DNA of 37,826 nt from a virus: positions 1 to 37,826 of IMG/VR virus record IMGVR_UViG_3300042938_002633. One strand, 5' to 3'. Under the pieces are notes generated by a model that saw only the letters and a program-made list of their open reading frames with translations, was not told the DNA's origin and made no database searches. Shown piece by piece: positions 12,291-30,106 of the stretch (position 1 is its first letter; each line of letters begins with the position of its first letter). Position numbers and translations under genes: made by a program.

Positions 12291-13676
12291 TTAGCTATTT
12301 GAATTGTTCCTAATTTCCTCAAAAGTCATATCACGGATTAGTTTACCATTAAGGTAAACGGTTTCAAGTCCATGTTTCCAACCATTGAGTAATTCAGGTG
12401 TTGTTTCACTTGTGGCAAATTTATTATCTTTACGCCACAGTTCAAGTAGACCTGCTTTGCTTTTCTTACCTGAATCGGTAATAGGATCCTTTAGAACTTT
12501 TCTCCAATCATGTTTACCGATTCGCACAGCAGAGCATTTCATTGCAAATTTCTGTGTATCCCTATTCACCTGTTGAAGAAGAGCACCACCCATACCAAAA
12601 GCAATATTATCAGCAGAGTAGCCGTTATTATCAAAGACAGTAAGGATATCCTTGACTGTGTTATAATTGACCCCATCACCCTGGATTAATCTAACATTAT
12701 TCAGGACTCGGTATCCCTTATCATTTACTGTAGAGCCAAATTTCTTATCTAGGAGCTGAATAAGTTTACAATTTACAGCAACCGGTTCACCAGAATCTGG
12801 TCGAATAACCAGAGTAGCACCAGAGTCGATGATCTTTTGTTTCAGCTCACCACCCCAGAGATTTTCTGCTGCATTGAATACATCATAACTATCACTCACA
12901 ACAGCAAGAATAGCACCAGGCTTGGCAAACTTATTCAGCATATTTTCATATGCTTTTACTTCATATGGGCGACCCCAACTAGTAATTGTGCTGTGTTCTG
13001 CGGCTGGAATAGAGAAACCAGCAATGCCTGCATTATAATGCTCACGAGCCCAAAGAATACCCGCAATGGTATCAGTACCCATGAAATTAATTAGATGCGC
13101 AGCACCACCAATTCCAGCGGATTCTTGACTTGAAACACCACGTGCACCGAAGTCATGAAGTTTAAAGCTAAGTCCAGCAGGATCACCATTCTTTTCTAAG
13201 AATCCTTTAATTAGATTCTTGATGGCTTTGCTGTTGGTTGCTACAGTTGTAGGATACCAAATTGCACGAAGCAGAGCTGTTTCCAAATGTGTTGTCAACC
13301 AAAAACAATTTGGATCTGTATTTTCAATAGTAAGTAGAACATTACTTACAGGAACAATAGTACCTTCTGGAACTGCACGGATATGGACTGGTAGTTTACC
13401 ACCGTGGTTGGTAACAATATATTCCCAACCAACACGATTAAATGGTTCACCATGGGCTTGCATAATTTCTTCTGCTAGATCAATGTCTGCCATTGTCACC
13501 GGCGTTAGAAGATAATCTTTAATGAAACCCTGTAGACCAAAGAATAAAGTTTCTAGATGTTCACCACCTCGTGATTCAATGTAGCTGTGAACAATTTCAG
13601 TCCCTTCTGGGTATTGTTCAAACATTGAAACTTTATAGCTGTCAACATTAAGTAGAATATTTTTTAGAATAGTCAT
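12291..13676 (-). CDS. nadV: Nicotinamide phosphoribosyltransferase (NAMPT/NadV)
   Basis: A 461-residue enzyme that makes nicotinamide mononucleotide from nicotinamide and PRPP. The start NVDSYKVSMFEQYPEGT, then HDFGARGVSSQESAG (conserved active-site region), the EHSTITSWG segment and RPDSGEP phosphate-binding loop are hallmarks of NAMPT. Length matches the family. GGAG precedes the ATG. It lies directly downstream of the NMN adenylyltransferase gene (18 nt gap), so the two form an operon covering nicotinamide to NAD+. Phage examples include Vibrio phage KVP40. Confidence 0.96.
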   Translation of the reverse strand: MTILKNILLNVDSYKVSMFEQYPEGTEIVHSYIESRGGEHLETLFFGLQGFIKDYLLTPVTMADIDLAEEIMQAHGEPFNRVGWEYIVTNHGGKLPVHIRAVPEGTIVPVSNVLLTIENTDPNCFWLTTHLETALLRAIWYPTTVATNSKAIKNLIKGFLEKNGDPAGLSFKLHDFGARGVSSQESAGIGGAAHLINFMGTDTIAGILWAREHYNAGIAGFSIPAAEHSTITSWGRPYEVKAYENMLNKFAKPGAILAVVSDSYDVFNAAENLWGGELKQKIIDSGATLVIRPDSGEPVAVNCKLIQLLDKKFGSTVNDKGYRVLNNVRLIQGDGVNYNTVKDILTVFDNNGYSADNIAFGMGGALLQQVNRDTQKFAMKCSAVRIGKHDWRKVLKDPITDSGKKSKAGLLELWRKDNKFATSETTPELLNGWKHGLETVYLNGKLIRDMTFEEIRNNSNS

Positions 13677-13693
13677 TAGATAAACTCCTTATC

Positions 13694-14689
13694 TTATTTC
13701 TTAAGTTTGGTAAAAGCTGGCATTGGCATAACACCAGTCATAGTAGAGATAATAGCAGCATGGTCATCATAGAGCTCATATGTATTAAGAGCATCAGTGA
13801 GTGGCACCCATTTACATAGTGCAGCATCATCGGCGCCATTTGCTCGTGGTAGAGAATAGTCTGGATTTGGACTGATCCTCATATAGACTGCTAATGTATT
13901 CCTTAGCAAGCCAAATGATCGAGACGGTGAATCAAAAAGTTGAGTCTTGACAATAGAGCCACGAAGAACTTTTTCTGGTACTCGAACATTTGTTTCTTCT
14001 TGAAGTTCACGAATAGCACAATCAAGAAAAGTTTCTTTATTATTTCTAAATCCACCTGGTAGAGCCCAACATCCAGCACCTGGAGCAAACTTACGTTGGA
14101 TTAGAAGAACATGACCCTGACATTCTAGAACAGCATCAGAGCAGTTGAAGTTGAGAGTATCAGGGAATGGATAGTTTGCAAACAGTTCTTGTTCTTTCTT
14201 ATAGAACAGATGATCTTGATAGACCGTTTCCGGCATACGCTTATCATGTTCTGCAAACATCTTTGCACGAATAGATGTAGCATTTACTGTATATTCGGCT
14301 TCAATATTTTTGAAGTTCCAATCTGGAAACCAGTTAAGATAGTCATTACCATCTTTTGTGTGACCAAAAAGAGTCGGTGGTGAATAGATGCCCCAATTCT
14401 TTTGGGTATACTCTACGCTTGCACGTACATCTGCCATCCACTGAGTATGGGAGTATTGATAGTCATTAAGGGGAAGAATGTCAATCAGATTGTCAATCTG
14501 TTCCCATTTTGAATGGAACATCTGAACTCGCTCTGAATAGGTCCATGGATTTTTAATGCTACGGCACTGATTAGCCGAACCGATAAGGACCAGAAGAAGG
14601 TCTACTTGCTTAGCGGCAACCTTGATTGCCTGAATATGACCTTCATGTAAGGGCTGAAAACGCCCAATGAATACGCCTAATGTTTTCAT
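13694..14689 (-). CDS. nadM: Bifunctional NMN adenylyltransferase / Nudix hydrolase
   Basis: A 331-residue protein. The N-terminal nucleotidyltransferase domain has GRFQPLHEGH (8-17) and the ATP-binding STxR-like TSIRAKM segment; it joins NMN and ATP to make NAD+. The C-terminal domain has a Nudix box: GG, then E seven residues on, then RELQEET, for hydrolysing ADP-ribose or similar nucleotides. This fusion is known from cyanobacteria and phages. Start chosen at MKTLGVF because AGGAG precedes it; a longer frame runs into the promoter. First gene of the NAD operon. Confidence 0.95.
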   Translation of the reverse strand: MKTLGVFIGRFQPLHEGHIQAIKVAAKQVDLLLVLIGSANQCRSIKNPWTYSERVQMFHSKWEQIDNLIDILPLNDYQYSHTQWMADVRASVEYTQKNWGIYSPPTLFGHTKDGNDYLNWFPDWNFKNIEAEYTVNATSIRAKMFAEHDKRMPETVYQDHLFYKKEQELFANYPFPDTLNFNCSDAVLECQGHVLLIQRKFAPGAGCWALPGGFRNNKETFLDCAIRELQEETNVRVPEKVLRGSIVKTQLFDSPSRSFGLLRNTLAVYMRISPNPDYSLPRANGADDAALCKWVPLTDALNTYELYDDHAAIISTMTGVMPMPAFTKLKK

Positions 14690-14722
14690 GTTCTTAACTC
14701 CTAAGAAACAATTTATATGTAT

Positions 14723-14750
14723 ATTATATACCACCTGTGGTGGTTGTCAA
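14723..14750 (-). promoter_or_regulatory. Promoter of the NAD salvage operon
   Basis: TTGACA (14745-14750), 16 nt spacer, TATAAT (14723-14728), exact consensus. The spacer holds an inverted repeat CCACC/GGTGG that could be an operator. Confidence 0.8.
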
Positions 14751-14839: not shown

Positions 14840-15022
14840 TTAAGTCTTTTTACACTCTATAATCTTATATTGAATTTCAGACTTATGCTTCTGAAATACG
14901 CTATTCATATGCTCAACCATATTTATCTCATCTCTGCAATCAGGGCTAGTGCTCTGTAGATTAATCGGGGAGCCCGTAGGAACCCCACCGATTAACATAG
15001 AGACAACAAGTACAATATTCAT
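14840..15022 (-). CDS. 60-residue hypothetical, possibly exported
   Basis: Starts MNIVLVVSMLIGGVPTGSP, a short hydrophobic N-terminus that could be a signal peptide, followed by a polar part with two Cys. The ATG shares a base with the TAA of the DUF2828 gene, so it is probably cotranslated. Ribosome binding site weak. Function unknown. Confidence 0.52.
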   Translation of the reverse strand: MNIVLVVSMLIGGVPTGSPINLQSTSPDCRDEINMVEHMNSVFQKHKSEIQYKIIECKKT

Positions 15023-16449
15023 TAGAAATTGTACCTTTCAGCCATAAGGGTCTTCATCATCATTGCCTCTGGTGTAAACTGTTCTAGATCGGAAGCCAGA
15101 ATAGACTTGAGGATAGATGGGCTGAAACCAGAGACTAGAGCCACACCATTCTCATTTTCCTTTACAGGAACATTGTCGTGTGAATTTAGATTCCAGAAAA
15201 CAATCTTTGGCATTGTATAACCGGCATCTGTAAACTTGCGACGGAATGTTTCCATAGCAGAGCCATCAAAGCGAGCGCATTGATTAAACTGCATGTCTGA
15301 AAGAATAAGAAGAGTGGAAGGCATATCCTCCTGTGGCACATTACCATTGACTGCAGTGTGAAGGATTAGATCCATTGCGGCAACAATGTTGGTGCTCATA
15401 GCCCATGAAGATTTAATCATCTGATCAATCTTCTGTAGGATATTACCACGAAGAGTTAGTAGTTCTGGTTGACTAGAGAATGTAAGGAACATGTCCTTAA
15501 AGTCCCCAGTATTCTTATCAGCACAATACAGACCAAGAGAAACAGCCACATCAAGGCAAGATGTGGTGCTAGAACCACCAACTGGGCATGTCATGGATCC
15601 AGAAACGTCAACCAGAGGAAGAACGTTTGAACCATTCATATAGTTTGGTAGTGCTTCCCACTGAGCCCGAACAGCATTTAGTTCTGCTTGAGAGTACCCA
15701 GCTGAAGTCCGATAGTGACTAATCTTACCCTTGAGTACATCATAAGGATAGACTGCACCAGCATTGATCTTGACTTCTTCACGAACCTTAGGATCAGTGC
15801 TGACAAGCTTTGATGTCCATTCCTTATACTTGGTAGTATTACGGTTGAAGGCCTTCTTATAGCGAGCAGAAGCAACAGATGGGACATGATTGAAGTTGAT
15901 AGAATCCCAATCTTTAGCGCACATCTGACTCTCAACAACAGAAGAGAGATTGACTAGAGTCTTACGGTACTGCTTAGGAGTGAAACCTAGAGCATTACGA
16001 AGTTCAATAGCAATTGGTCCCTTACGTGGCATCCACTTTGCAGCTAGACCATCACGTGTTGCAAGAGCACGTCGAACCATTCCAATAGCAATATTACGTG
16101 CTTCACCAGAAGTAGAGAATACGTCATCCCAACGCCCAAGTTCTGGTACACGAAGTACTAGACGAGAAGCCATATTTGGATCGTTATCAGAGACATATGC
16201 AAGAATAGAACGGAAAATTTCACGTTCACCTGCACCGGATCGAATATCACGAGCCCATAGAGCAATACGGCAAGCAAGTTCCTTATCTTGAACATATGCT
16301 GCGATAAAGTCTGGTAGGACATTCTTGCCACGTGAAGCACCGATCTTATAGAATAGATCAACGCATGGATTAGTTGTGCTCTTTAGAGCCTTCATACCGT
16401 TTGTGGTACGAGTAGTTTGATTGCGAGCAGCCTTAGCAAAAGCGTTCAT
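15022..16449 (-). CDS. DUF2828 / TROVE-like Ro60-type protein with vWA domain
   Basis: A 475-residue protein. The N-terminal helical part has ARDIRSGAGEREIFR (66-80), the GGKGER-like signature of DUF2828. The C-terminal von Willebrand A domain carries the MIDAS DVSGSM (281-286), later LILSDMQFN and KIVFWNLNSH, all typical of DUF2828. The family shares its plan (helical repeats plus vWA) with TROVE/Ro60 proteins, ring-shaped binders of misfolded RNA and Y RNAs. RNA binding here is inferred. Its leader consists of a tandem array of structured RNA modules (16471-17077), much as bacterial Ro genes sit next to Y RNAs. AAAGGA lies right after the last module and before the ATG. Confidence 0.9.
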   Translation of the reverse strand: MNAFAKAARNQTTRTTNGMKALKSTTNPCVDLFYKIGASRGKNVLPDFIAAYVQDKELACRIALWARDIRSGAGEREIFRSILAYVSDNDPNMASRLVLRVPELGRWDDVFSTSGEARNIAIGMVRRALATRDGLAAKWMPRKGPIAIELRNALGFTPKQYRKTLVNLSSVVESQMCAKDWDSINFNHVPSVASARYKKAFNRNTTKYKEWTSKLVSTDPKVREEVKINAGAVYPYDVLKGKISHYRTSAGYSQAELNAVRAQWEALPNYMNGSNVLPLVDVSGSMTCPVGGSSTTSCLDVAVSLGLYCADKNTGDFKDMFLTFSSQPELLTLRGNILQKIDQMIKSSWAMSTNIVAAMDLILHTAVNGNVPQEDMPSTLLILSDMQFNQCARFDGSAMETFRRKFTDAGYTMPKIVFWNLNSHDNVPVKENENGVALVSGFSPSILKSILASDLEQFTPEAMMMKTLMAERYNF

Positions 16450-16470
16450 AATATAGTTCCTTTCATTGAC

Positions 16471-16569
16471 AGATTAACCGATCTGCAAGTTATCACACCT
16501 GCGCCCAGATCGTTGGGTTTTTGATATCACAAAAAGTGACTGGAGATTGTTTTTAGCGGAAGTTAATCT
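16471..16569 (-). ncRNA. RNA module 6
   Basis: Outer helix AGATTAAC/GTTAATCT (8 bp), then TTCCGC. A second helix CGATCTG/CAGATCG (16479-16485 with 16506-16512) stacks directly on the outer 3' strand. Also a TCAC-TTTTT-GTGA hairpin. It ends 20 nt before the DUF2828 start. Confidence 0.78.
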
Positions 16570-16582
16570 TAAGTAAGATAAC

Positions 16583-16711
16583 AGAGTGACTTCTTCTCCG
16601 GGTTTAACCAGGCGGATTCGAAACCCTGGGTTGTCAATTTGACCGTAGTCTGTGACATTTTCATGAAAGCCCTCGTGAAAGGGCTAAAATGGGTTGCTGA
16701 ATGGTCACTCT
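16583..16711 (-). ncRNA. RNA module 5
   Basis: Outer helix AGAGTGAC/GTCACTCT (8 bp), 2 nt, then TTCAGC. Inside: hairpin AGCCCT-TTCACG-AGGGCT and a T-loop-like TTCGAAT flanked by CCAGG/CCTGG (about 16608-16629). Followed by CTGTTA. Confidence 0.78.
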
Positions 16712-16721
16712 AAAATTTAAC

Positions 16722-16823
16722 AGAATAGCATGCTTTTCCTGGCAATCCAGCCTCGCAACGGTCGAATCGAACGACCACGGTCCTTGTTCAAAAAGAAGAT
16801 TTTTATGTTGCTGTAACTATTCT
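16722..16823 (-). ncRNA. RNA module 4 with canonical T-arm
   Basis: Outer helix AGAATAG/CTATTCT (7 bp), then TTACAGC. It holds a perfect tRNA T-arm GGTCG-TTCGATT-CGACC (16760-16776) next to a GCAAC/GTTGC helix that takes the place of an acceptor stem. No anticodon arm is visible. Confidence 0.8.
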
Positions 16824-16842
16824 TTATTCTTAAGAGAATAAC

Positions 16843-16942
16843 AGGATGTTGTTTTTTAGGTTGGATTTGAACCAACTACCAGGTGTTTTGAGGACACTTT
16901 GCTCTACCGATGAGCTACTATTTGGTTTGCTGAAAACATCCT
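16843..16942 (-). ncRNA. RNA module 3, tRNA-like
   Basis: Outer helix AGGATGTT/AACATCCT (8 bp), then TTCAGC. Inside are a D-arm (GCTC-ATCGGTA-GAGC, 16901-16915), an anticodon-like hairpin (GTGT/ACAC, loop CCTCAAA, 16883-16897) and a canonical T-arm (GTTGG-TTCAAAT-CCAAC, 16860-16876). Only 3 bp of a normal acceptor stem can form and position 33 is C, so this is a tRNA mimic and not a working tRNA. Confidence 0.82.
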
Positions 16943-16951
16943 TTAGATATC

Positions 16952-17014
16952 AGATTCGCTTTTTTGCAGTTTTGATTTACAGTTCAATTGCTTTTTGAAT
17001 GCTGAAACGAATCT
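16952..17014 (-). ncRNA. RNA module 2
   Basis: Outer helix AGATTCG/CGAATCT (7 bp), then TTTCAGC. Interior is A-rich with an imperfect TTCA..ATT/AATTGAA hairpin. No tRNA-like arm. Confidence 0.72.
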
Positions 17015-17024
17015 ATAAGTTAGC

Positions 17025-17077
17025 GGGTTGGACTTGGTTGCTCTTGGATTATAGCTTTTGTAGGCTGAACCCAACCC
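17025..17077 (-). ncRNA. RNA module 1
   Basis: Outer helix GGGTTGG/CCAACCC (7 bp), then TTCAGC one base later. Shortest unit; first after the promoter. Confidence 0.72.
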
Positions 17078-17099
17078 TTATTCCTTAATTTATAAGCGT

Positions 17100-17128
17100 A
17101 TTATATACCAGATTTATGTCAATGTCAA
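17100..17128 (-). promoter_or_regulatory. Perfect promoter driving the RNA array and DUF2828 gene
   Basis: TTGACA (17123-17128), 17 nt spacer, TATAAT (17100-17105). The -35 is read as Leu-Thr codons at the end of the PTH2-like gene. Predicted start of transcription is near 17093, about 15 nt before module 1. Confidence 0.85.
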
Positions 17129-17891: not shown

Positions 17892-17966
17892 TGGTGCAAA
17901 TGCGGGGAATCGAACCCCGACTTCCGATTTTAGAGATCGCCCTGCTAACCGTTACATCACATTTGC
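17892..17966 (-). tRNA. tRNA with CUA anticodon (amber suppressor)
   Basis: Acceptor GCAAATG/CATTTGC, T-arm CGGGG-TTCGATT-CCCCG, encoded CCA. Anticodon loop CTCTAAA on CGAT/ATCG gives CTA, which reads UAG. One G-G mismatch at 27-43. It follows RNA module 0 by 9 nt. The amino acid it carries cannot be told by eye. Confidence 0.8.
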
Positions 17967-17975
17967 ATATTAAAC

Positions 17976-18033
17976 GGATTGGTGTGTTTTTGTTTTTTCC
18001 AATAAAAACTTTTTTAGTTGCTGAAACAAATCC
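17976..18033 (-). ncRNA. RNA module 0 (separate copy of the array module)
   Basis: GGATT/AATCC helix (5 bp, extendable with one mismatch), then TTTCAGCAAC as in the array, with a GTTTTTATTGG..AAAAAC interior. Lies between the 18046-18402 gene and the CUA tRNA. Confidence 0.6.
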
Positions 18034-26050: not shown

Positions 26051-26443
26051 ATGAAGATCCTTCGATTCCACGAGAAGCATGGCGATCGAGTTTTCCTTTT
26101 CAAAACCAAAGAGGAATACCAGCTGATCCTAGCGCAGGTTGCACAGGAAAGGTTGGATGAAGGCTATTGGTATGACACTGAGAATGGCAGTGATCAGATT
26201 GACAGGTTGTGGCCCATGCGGCATCTCAGTGATGCGGGTCACATTGCACTGCTGCTCAAGCGTCTCCAGGACCCTTTGGAACGGCCCAACACCAACCCCA
26301 CCAGCTATTATCTGCACCAGGTTGCGCAATGGATGCGAGCTCGTCGGGACTATGAGTATGAGGGCTGGGATGTACTGCCCGTCGAACAGTGTCAACTCAC
26401 CCACTACGAGGGCAGCGTGCGTCGCACCAGCTCTGCAACATAG
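26051..26443 (+). CDS. 130-residue hypothetical protein
   Basis: Start chosen at MKILRFHEKHGDRV because AAGGA lies 9 nt upstream; an in-frame ATG at 26021 is the alternative. Helical, Gln/Arg-rich. Higher GC than its neighbours. Third member of the same-frame TAG chain; its own stop is TAG, with TGA four codons later. Confidence 0.66.
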   Translation: MKILRFHEKHGDRVFLFKTKEEYQLILAQVAQERLDEGYWYDTENGSDQIDRLWPMRHLSDAGHIALLLKRLQDPLERPNTNPTSYYLHQVAQWMRARRDYEYEGWDVLPVEQCQLTHYEGSVRRTSSAT

Positions 26444-26454
26444 AGGTTCATAAT

Positions 26455-26787
26455 ATGAAAACACTTGCTAGATTTGCCATTCGCCCTGCTGATAACCAGT
26501 ATTCAAAGGGCGACCTTATCCTGGGCGCTATGTTTCGAGAGCAGGACACCAACCTGCTCAAACCCAACTATGTGTATGAGATTCGAGAAATTCTAGATAC
26601 ACTTACTATAGTAAATATGGGTGAGAGTTCAATGGGTATGTATCCCATTGAAGCCCAACTTGACAGCCCACTACGAGGTATGGTATCCCATGTTGGATGG
26701 TGTTCAGACGTAAGCTATATTCTTAGCGTAGGTGCTGGACAACATTTAGTAACTCGCACTGAAATGAATAGATCATTTAGGAGGTAA
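26455..26787 (+). CDS. 110-residue hypothetical protein
   Basis: Begins MKTLARFAIRPADNQYSKGD; mixed alpha/beta. GAGG 6-9 nt upstream decides this start over a longer frame that overlaps the previous gene. Function unknown. Confidence 0.68.
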   Translation: MKTLARFAIRPADNQYSKGDLILGAMFREQDTNLLKPNYVYEIREILDTLTIVNMGESSMGMYPIEAQLDSPLRGMVSHVGWCSDVSYILSVGAGQHLVTRTEMNRSFRR

Positions 26788-30019: not shown

Positions 30020-30106
30020 TGGCGGGGGAAATCGGACTCGAACCAATTAAAATTTGTTGCTGTAGTTATCCAGCTGGATAAATCCACACCACGTGGAATC
30101 TCCCCC
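30020..30106 (-). tRNA. tRNA-like gene with palindromic anticodon arm
   Basis: Good acceptor (GGGGGAG/TTCCCCC), D-arm (TCCA/TGGA), T-arm (ATTGG-TTCGAGT-CCGAT) and CCA. The anticodon region is the palindrome TTATCCAGCTGGATAA, giving only 6- or 8-nt loops, and a long variable region follows. Isotype cannot be assigned; it may not decode. Confidence 0.65.

What the first reader, a model, noticed from the sequence alone, without database searches (positions are those of the whole stretch)
15022..17128. Ro60-like DUF2828 gene preceded by a tandem array of Y-RNA-like RNA modules
Seen directly: from a perfect TTGACA-17-TATAAT promoter to the DUF2828 ATG lie six successive units, each closed by its own 7-8 bp perfect inverted repeat and each carrying TTCAGC (or TTACAGC/TTCCGC) right after the 5' strand. 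The helix sequences all differ while complementarity and motif position are kept, as expected for a selected RNA. Known: bacterial Ro (TROVE) proteins are encoded beside Y RNAs, some of which mimic tRNA. Inference: the array makes several ligands or scaffolds for the phage DUF2828 ring, perhaps cut into single RNAs at the CTGTTA junctions, to steer RNA decay, tRNA quality control or host defence. I know of no described multi-module Y-RNA array in phages.
Basis: partly seen in the sequence, partly recalled or inferred. Interest (0 to 1): 0.95.

Follow-up and report, generated by a model that had tools for sequence, protein, structure and literature searches.

The report
Phage RNA handles for Ro-like protein
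A virus of bacteria carries, in front of the gene for a ring-shaped RNA-binding protein, a row of small RNAs that share one stem-and-motif "handle" and often imitate transfer RNAs; the same handle accompanies this protein family in many phages and bacteria and resembles an unexplained RNA class of social amoebae.

Summary
Six modules (a seventh, imperfect, at 18032-17975) precede the DUF2828 gene, each closed by a 7-8 bp helix followed by C-N-G-C. The predicted protein fold is Ro60. Helix + CAGCA lies upstream in 72 of 75 viral loci, helix + CAGCAA beside 61 of 76 bacterial ones; unrelated control words are rare. Helix letters change on both sides and pairing is kept. Nine TROVE-type loci show no excess. 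Interiors differ: circularly permuted tRNAs in YrlA order, linear tRNAs, anticodon-hairpin mimics, long unknowns. Sixteen tRNA genes in nine loci, one in this window, carry the clamp turned inside out. The Rfam model of Dictyostelium Class I RNAs picks out clamp modules in 10 of 24 DUF2828-positive viral records, but misses many others, including the bacterial ones. Best reading: Y-RNA-like handles that hold tRNA-like ends on a Ro ring. Binding, expression and effectors are untested. Phage Y RNAs beside Ro-like genes were already proposed in print; the CAGCAA clamp, arrays of up to eight, clamped tRNAs and the amoeba link were not seen in the papers searched.

The parts
17100..17128 (-). sigma70-type promoter TTGACA-17-TATAAT ahead of the array
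   Evidence: read directly; activity not tested
17975..18032 (-). module 0: single clamp module about 1 kb upstream, one mismatch in the helix
   Evidence: RF01414 hit E 0.035; sequence; perfect helix in relative L008
17025..17077 (-). module 1, 53 nt, GGGTTGG/CCAACCC + TTCAGC
   Evidence: orthologue in L008
16952..17014 (-). module 2, 63 nt, anticodon-hairpin-like interior
   Evidence: L008 orthologue has a 7-nt loop CTGTTAA on a 4-bp stem
16843..16942 (-). module 3, 100 nt, tRNA-like in normal order, clamp in place of the acceptor stem
   Evidence: Rfam tRNA 35.1 bits over 16920-16857; alignment A4
16722..16823 (-). module 4, 102 nt, perfect T-arm GGTCG-TTCGATT-CGACC
   Evidence: helix differs from L008 by two double changes
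16583..16711 (-). module 5, 129 nt, interior with a GTTTCGAAT T-loop-like element
   Evidence: (z -3.8)
16471..16569 (-). module 6, 99 nt, ends 7 nt before the Shine-Dalgarno AAAGGA
15022..16449 (-). Ro60-like protein (DUF2828 + DUF7788/vWA), 475 aa
   Evidence: Pfam; fold search
30020..30106 (-). clamped tRNA-like gene: acceptor stem and GCCA, D-like arm, T-arm, anticodon arm replaced by capped clamp TTATCC-AGCT-GGATAA + CTA-CAGCAA

Best explanation
The array encodes six Y-RNA-like RNAs (seven with module 0) for the adjacent Ro60-like ring protein. Shared handle (shown as sequence and covariation): a terminal helix of 6-8 bp and free sequence, a linker of mostly 2-3 nt, C-N-G-C-A-A, and G after the 3' strand. 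Interior (shown): variable, in part a tRNA mimic. Inferred: the ring holds the handle while the other end reaches a tRNA-handling partner (nuclease, modification enzyme or translation factor), as YrlA tethers Rsr to PNPase. One transcript thus supplies RNPs with different docking ends during infection, acting in the RNA decay and tRNA economy of a phage rich in tRNA genes. Inferred: units are released at the AU-rich junctions. Inferred: binding of the last module, whose helix ends close to the start codon in most viral relatives, limits translation of the ring gene.
For: Clamp tied to DUF2828: helix + CAGCA upstream, 207 places in 72 of 75 viral loci; 23 of 29 permutations of the word give 0-10 places, the six others 19-146, most of these overlapping the motif or its variants. 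Helix + CAGCAA beside 61 of 76 bacterial loci; ten control words reach at most 7 loci. TROVE genes: 6 places in 9 loci, controls 0-6; DUF2828 genes of the same phylum sample: 9 places in 6 of 7 loci, controls 0-4. All seven outer pairs occur as four Watson-Crick types in 403 non-redundant modules. G after the 3' arm in 327 of 343 without rewarding it. T-arm in 69 and T+D in 31 of 403; shuffled interiors gave 0.55 (T) and 0 (T+D) on average. Permuted class: 17 of 19 pairs with double changes, covariation 0.719 against 0.225, 0/500. Ro60 fold. Clamp modules elsewhere in some DUF2828 phages that lack a neighbouring array. Last module 11-23 nt before the start codon in 66 of 75 viral loci, not all independent.
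Against: No binding or expression data; no effector identified. 325 of 403 modules have neither T- nor D-arm by the strict test. The YrlA model stays below its cut-off and also scores tandem ordinary tRNA genes and 13 of 14 control genomes. 11 of 76 bacterial and 9 of 21 phage-record loci had no module in the range scanned. The phage RNA region given by coordinates in PMC12282133 is not a clamp module but fits ROOL RNA. Structure model of middling confidence.
Confidence: 0.62

Rival explanations
1. Decoy array: tRNA-like and anticodon-hairpin modules, held on the ring, absorb host tRNA-cutting defence enzymes (anticodon nucleases, PARIS AriB, Septu and the like).
For: Interiors show tRNA faces: T-arm, D-arm, capped acceptor, and anticodon-like hairpins with many loops (86 hairpin hits, of which 41 are mostly T-arms and about 45 others, some spurious; 3.3 modules expected in shuffles). 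tRNA-targeting defences and tRNA-based evasion are described (starts of abstracts in the listing: PMC10264068, PMC11555353, PMC12409363). The Ro-like CKA15_055 was found in purified Listeria phage particles, 20 peptides, 57.1% coverage (PMC12282133 passages), so an RNP could arrive with the phage.
Against: Bacterial contigs have the same arrays, which do not need anti-defence, though some may be prophage. Loops are not concentrated on one target. No nuclease tested.
Confidence: 0.2
2. The modules act only in cis: a structured 5' leader that the Ro-like protein binds to control its own synthesis.
For: Array lies between promoter and start codon; last helix ends 11-23 nt before the start codon in 66 of 75 viral loci.
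Against: In two mycobacteriophages, a Staphylococcus and a Felix-type phage modules lie downstream, and in KVP40, nt-1 and Ahp1 kilobases away. Clamped tRNAs are separate genes. Autoregulation may coexist with the best explanation.
Confidence: 0.1
3. Decayed tRNA cluster: the modules are tRNA remnants in a tRNA-rich phage and the helices are incidental.
For: Window has 23 tRNA genes; one module scores as tRNA.
Against: Clamp recurs with covariation beside the same protein family in phages and bacteria. Most modules have no tRNA content by the strict test.
Confidence: 0.03

Closest known systems
Bacterial Y RNA YrlA (Rfam RF02553) with Rsr/Ro60
   Same: Terminal helix plus effector module; T-arm, capped acceptor, D-arm in that permuted order in one class of modules; encoded beside a Ro60-fold protein.
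   Different: Handle is stem + C-N-G-C-A-A, not the YrlA handle (Rfam consensus); model hits below the Rfam cut-off and not specific; arrays of up to eight units; linear tRNA, anticodon-hairpin and long interiors; clamped tRNA genes.
Dictyostelid Class I RNAs (Rfam RF01414; PMC7919456, passages read)
   Same: Short stem joining the ends with compensatory changes, motif next to the 5' stem (Rfam consensus CUUACAGCAA), variable interior, median about 60 nt; the model picks out phage modules. Published ends AAG and CUGU: 151 of 189 IMG/VR modules end CTGT (in a set chosen with a reward for G).
   Different: Eukaryotic genes with a DUSE element; known binder is the RRM protein Rnp1A. Bacterial and phage-record modules end CTGT in only 10 of 184 and 5 of 30. 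The model finds none of the upstream modules of seven bacterial DUF2828 genomes. The paper found no Class I RNA outside dictyostelids.
Putative Y RNAs of Listeria phage CKA15 (PMC12282133; passages and section 8 read)
   Same: Proposes Y RNAs near a phage Ro-like gene.
   Different: The region it gives by coordinates (26,236-26,727) maps to a ROOL-like RNA; in the relative A511 three clamp modules lie directly before the gene.
Ro60/TROVE proteins, e.g. Thermus phage phiLo Ro60 (PDB 9l5y, 9kop)
   Same: Same fold over 378-380 residues, Z 14.8-14.9.
   Different: 12-13% identity; other Pfam family; nine TROVE loci scanned show no excess of the clamp.

Membership tests
Ro60/TROVE protein | ring of helical repeats plus vWA domain fold | tested here: met
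   Ranks 1-10 all Ro60, Z 14.9-10.4; next are vWA only, 8.8; model pLDDT 63.9, pTM 0.50
Ro60/TROVE protein | Pfam TROVE (PF05731) match | tested here: not met
   Only DUF7788 and DUF2828 match at E <= 0.001; so it is a DUF2828 protein with a Ro60 fold, not filed as TROVE
bacterial Y RNA (YrlA, RF02553) | covariance model at gathering score 69 | tested here: not met
   Best 39.8 bits (LeBron) and 39.1 (L022 contig); none of 7 records over the cut-off; tandem tRNA genes also score
bacterial Y RNA (YrlA, RF02553) | terminal helix, T-arm, capped acceptor, D-arm in that order | tested here: met
   23-sequence alignment A3: all four helices covary; holds for the permuted class in related loci, not for window modules 1-6
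bacterial Y RNA (general) | encoded beside a Ro60-fold gene | tested here: met
bacterial Y RNA (general) | bound by the Ro protein through the terminal helix | not testable with these tools
   needs a binding experiment
Dictyostelid Class I RNA (RF01414) | covariance model at gathering score 41.5 | tested here: not met
   Best 33.4 bits (phage nt-1, E 1.7e-5); none of 24 DUF2828-positive viral records over the cut-off
Dictyostelid Class I RNA (RF01414) | covarying short stem with a conserved motif at the 5' stem and a variable interior | tested here: met
   against the description in PMC7919456
Dictyostelid Class I RNA (RF01414) | conserved ends AAG and CUGU | tested here: inconclusive
   CTGT end in 151 of 189 IMG/VR modules but 10 of 184 bacterial and 5 of 30 phage-record modules; AAG start in 96 of 184 bacterial modules
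Dictyostelid Class I RNA (RF01414) | a DUF2828/Ro-type protein as partner in amoebae | not testable with these tools
   no eukaryotic genomes held
tRNA | complete cloverleaf with acceptor stem and 3' CCA | tested here: not met
   Module 3 matches Rfam tRNA positions 5-66 only, clamp in place of the acceptor; the clamped gene at window 30106-30020 does have an acceptor stem and GCCA

The most novel reading that the evidence does not exclude
One RNA-handle system spans phages, bacteria and social amoebae: RNAs with the stem + C-N-G-C-A-A clamp are the dedicated partners of the DUF2828 branch of Ro60-fold rings, and the abundant Class I RNAs of Dictyostelium belong to it. Phages and bacteria use the handle to mount a library of tRNA faces on the ring, including whole tRNAs with the handle set into the anticodon stem, from which the permuted tRNA order of Y RNAs may have arisen. 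(Odds lowered from 0.35 on rechecking: the Class I model does not find the bacterial modules.)
Probability: 0.3. Interest if true: 0.95.

Novelty: new variant of a known kind. Interest (0 to 1): 0.83.

Why it matters
It gives a large family of unnamed phage and bacterial proteins (682 of 50,697 phage records hold a relative) an RNA partner that can be recognised from sequence. It offers an origin for the odd permuted tRNA order of bacterial Y RNAs. It turns two open questions, what phage Ro-like proteins do and what Dictyostelium Class I RNAs are for, into simple pull-down and mutation tests. It also adds a possible second way for phages to use tRNA-like RNA, besides encoding spare tRNAs.

Tried and rejected
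Chance helices: rejected by shuffles and word controls. In the same 75 viral loci CAGCA helices are also the commonest outside the upstream range (155; other words 31-119), a mild excess. Rfam at gathering score: no family but tRNA was reported on modules of the window, of 14 further loci and of 20 bacterial loci. Exact junction CCTGTTGAGTTTTAGG in IMG/VR: 7 stretches, too specific. CATTCTGTAAAGAATG in IMG/VR to find more clamped tRNAs: 36 stretches; in the printed contexts I saw no clamped tRNA. A YrlA-type GNCGAA handle (motif recalled) with a perfect helix was sought in the TROVE and DUF2828 loci and none was printed, so the Y RNAs of those TROVE genomes were not identified. Sequence profile against PDB: only weak TROVE matches, E 0.75. 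Amber recoding (TAG=Q) was listed and not pursued.

Results against the reading. RF01414: the level E <= 0.0051 was chosen after seeing the hits. 14 of 24 DUF2828-positive viral records have no hit at that level, among them LeBron, an Enterococcus and a Bacillus phage with clear modules; none of the E <= 10 hits in seven bacterial DUF2828 genomes falls on their upstream modules (only 150 of up to 8389 first-look candidates were scored per genome). T4, without a DUF2828 match, gave one hit at E 0.0024 that lacks the clamp; a second ME3 hit at 0.0197 lacks it too; two hits in the L022 contig were not inspected. Whole-genome scans: KVP40 has 9 places with CAGCAA, G tail and linker 1-4, control words 0-10, so the count is no excess; I picked three by eye for form and place (tRNA cluster), one of which RF01414 also hits. 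Tribble 5, controls 0-2; phiM12 3, controls 0-5, no excess.

Rows dropped: five of 80 IMG/VR loci in all counts (L007, L017, L040, L041, L064: gene at the contig end), and L006 (near-identical to the window); four of 80 bacterial loci (L171, L210, L237, L242). Bacterial gene starts were taken as the match start or a common value. One search gave 28 permuted and 19 linear rows by a laxer test; L011, L056, L071, L199, L231 and L232 were left out of A3 and L079 added by eye; L046, L071, L078 and L206 were left out of A4. Of 24 raw clamped-tRNA hits I kept 16: repeats of the window locus (L107, L110), ordinary tRNAs (L016, L027, L028, L077) and false hits (L081, L085) were set aside by eye. The 24 come from four words taken together; ten control words gave 2 in all.

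Papers: Chen et al. 2014, Sim et al. 2020 and Wang et al. 2018 are known to me by recall and citation only (not held).
Full report
What is there. The window is a 37,826-base virus record of IMG/VR. Its family B DNA polymerase is nearest, among the eight rows shown, to cyanophages at about 48%, so I take it for a T4-like phage. It has 23 tRNA genes called by ARAGORN, all on the minus strand. Against Markov shuffles the strict pattern occurs 4 times in the array region, mean 0.03, maximum 1 in 2000. A seventh, imperfect module lies at 18032-17975.

The protein. An AlphaFold model from 26 window and IMG/VR sequences (pLDDT 63.9, pTM 0.50) matches Ro60 before anything else. Foldseek's three matches at E <= 0.001 are Thermus phage phiLo Ro60, a TROVE crystal structure and human Ro60. 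VIA-align ranks 1-10 are Ro60 entries, Z 14.9 to 10.4, then vWA-only proteins from 8.8. By Pfam it is not TROVE. Relatives are in 682 of 50,697 phage records and in bacterial contigs (80 kept of at least 440). None of eight DUF2828-bearing genomes searched had a TROVE match.

The clamp is conserved and specific. I asked how often a helix of at least 7 perfect pairs is followed within five bases by CAGCA, within 1.5 kb upstream of the gene. In 75 viral loci there are 207 such places, in 72 loci. Of 29 permutations of the word, 23 give 0-10 places; ACAGC, GCAAC, GCACA, CACAG, CGCAA and AGCAC give 146, 94, 24, 23, 22 and 19, most of them overlapping the motif or its CCGCAA variant. With CAGCAA within 800 nt on either side, 61 of 76 bacterial loci and 10 of 21 phage-record loci have modules; ten control words reach at most 7 and 1 loci. 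In a sample of 398 genomes of one phylum, 9 had TROVE and 7 DUF2828. Around the TROVE genes there is no excess (6 places in 5 of 9 loci; controls 0-6); around the DUF2828 genes there are 9 places in 6 of 7 loci (controls 0-4). In 403 non-redundant modules (189 IMG/VR, 184 bacterial, 30 phage-record) every outer pair occurs as all four Watson-Crick types, and the core is CAGCAA in 311. The base after the 3' arm is G in 327 of 343 when this was not rewarded. Between the window and its nearest full relative, L008, modules 3 and 4 differ by one and two double changes that keep the pairs. These counts treat related loci as separate; some are near-identical.

The interiors. A perfect T-arm is present in 69 of 403 modules, T-arm plus D-arm in 31; shuffled interiors gave 0.55 modules with a T-arm and none with both. 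325 modules have neither arm by this strict test, so tRNA mimicry is common but far from universal. In 21 of the 31 the T-arm precedes the D-arm, the order of YrlA. In a set of 23 such modules RNAalifold finds clamp, T-arm, capped acceptor and D-arm unaided. Seventeen of 19 pairs have double changes, covariation is 0.719 against 0.225 in shuffles, 0/500, and sliding the partners by one to three columns destroys it. The YrlA model scores two modules at E 7.5e-9 and 2.8e-8, below its cut-off, but it also scores tandem ordinary tRNA genes of the window (E 2.3e-5) and rings in 13 of 14 control genomes, so this is weak support. Others are linear tRNAs with the clamp in place of the acceptor stem, like window module 3, or short modules with an anticodon-like hairpin. 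Sixty of the 189 IMG/VR modules exceed 140 nt and are unexplained.

Clamped tRNA genes. Scanning for a capped clamp between the two halves of a cloverleaf gave 24 raw hits for the four C-N-G-C-A-A words together; ten control words gave 2 in all. After removing repeats, ordinary tRNAs and false hits by eye, 16 genes in nine loci remain: two in Synechococcus phage BUCT-ZZ01, one each in the window and in viral locus L056, and twelve in six bacterial contigs, in L187 within the same array as ordinary modules. By my reading the clamp sits in the 5' strand of the anticodon stem in several of them, with the stem pairing kept on both sides of it, and the anticodons read as Asn GTT, Ile GAT, Asp GTC and Tyr GTA. 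The BUCT-ZZ01 tRNA-Asn and the module L016:412-523 read alike on both sides of the clamp, so one looks like the other with the ends moved. In L232 two tandem clamped tRNAs can be read as one permuted module, which suggests how the permuted order could arise. This is inference.

Phages without a neighbouring array, and an outside probe. A Felix-type phage has three canonical modules in its tRNA cluster (5 places, controls 0-2). KVP40 has three of canonical form in its tRNA cluster, but its total of 9 places is no more than control words give (0-10), so these rest on form and place; phiM12 shows no excess. The Rfam model of Dictyostelium Class I RNAs, noticed through a weak hit, was then used as a probe. 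In 24 DUF2828-positive viral records it gave 11 hits at E <= 0.0051 (a level chosen afterwards) in 10 records, all with the clamp on inspection; they include one KVP40 module, nt-1 (E 1.7e-5), Ahp1, ME3 and an Erwinia phage, the last two far from the gene. The other 14 records, some with clear modules, had no hit at that level. Five phages without DUF2828 gave one such hit, in T4, without the clamp. In seven bacterial DUF2828 genomes no hit fell on the upstream modules, with only part of the candidates scored. No hit reaches the cut-off of 41.5 bits. The published description of Class I RNAs, a short covarying stem, a motif at the 5' stem, AAG start, CUGU end and a free interior (PMC7919456, passages), fits the IMG/VR modules closely (151 of 189 end CTGT) and the bacterial ones less well (10 of 184). 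I regard common descent as possible, not shown: the motif is short and no eukaryotic partner could be searched.

What it does. Known: bacterial YrlA binds Rsr by its basal stem and PNPase by its tRNA-like end (PMC8394870, passages). Inferred: the phage array supplies a set of such tethers. The last helix ends 11-23 nt before the start codon in 66 of 75 viral loci, which would let the protein limit its own translation. A decoy role against tRNA-cutting defence is possible; arrays in bacteria argue that it is not the only role. In Listeria phage CKA15 the Ro-like protein was found in purified particles (PMC12282133 passages), so the RNP may travel with the phage.

What is new. Phage Y RNAs beside Ro-like genes were already proposed (PMC12282133; PMC7765460 and PMC7824862 mention Ro60-type proteins with Y RNAs or tRNA-like partners, passages; by recall also Chen et al. 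2014, which I could not read). In the searches I saw no description of the CAGCAA clamp with DUF2828, of such arrays, of clamped tRNA genes, or of a link to Class I RNAs. I saw listings of these searches, not the papers; the library lacks most subscription journals and preprints, so this is a limited statement.

Noticed in passing
L086 2507-3058 (Listeria phage A511; about CKA15 26,236-26,727): A highly transcribed noncoding region of phage CKA15, for which the paper considers Y RNA, matches ROOL RNA in the relative A511 (87.5 bits, E 3.4e-16, below the cut-off of 99.1).
   Followed up: partly
L241 1062-1636: A full ROOL RNA (314 bits) lies in a tRNA cluster upstream of a DUF2828 gene and its modules.
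   Followed up: no
Long modules of IMG/VR loci, e.g. L049, L045, L075, L067: Modules of 150-275 nt share elements such as ACCGATATACTGGGGATGGGG or GAGTTTCGATTTCTC; fold and role unknown.
   Followed up: no
window 17892-17966 (-): tRNA with anticodon CTA (called Pyl by ARAGORN), a possible amber suppressor, between module 0 and the array.
   Followed up: partly
window about 30213-30139 (-): A degenerate tRNA-like sequence with a TGC loop and CCA end, not called by ARAGORN, next to the clamped tRNA.
   Followed up: no
window 12291-14734 (-): NAD salvage genes (NAMPT and a cytidylyltransferase-NUDIX fusion) downstream of the Ro-like gene and tRNA-Trp.
   Followed up: no
L079 about 1183-1238: A minimal RNA with only an acceptor-like stem (GGGACA/TGTCCC-GCCA) and a capped clamp.
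   Followed up: partly
KVP40 175367 and 173125 (-): Two long clamp-like modules of 213 and 247 nt in the tRNA cluster of a T4-like Vibrio phage; their record annotation was not viewed.
   Followed up: partly
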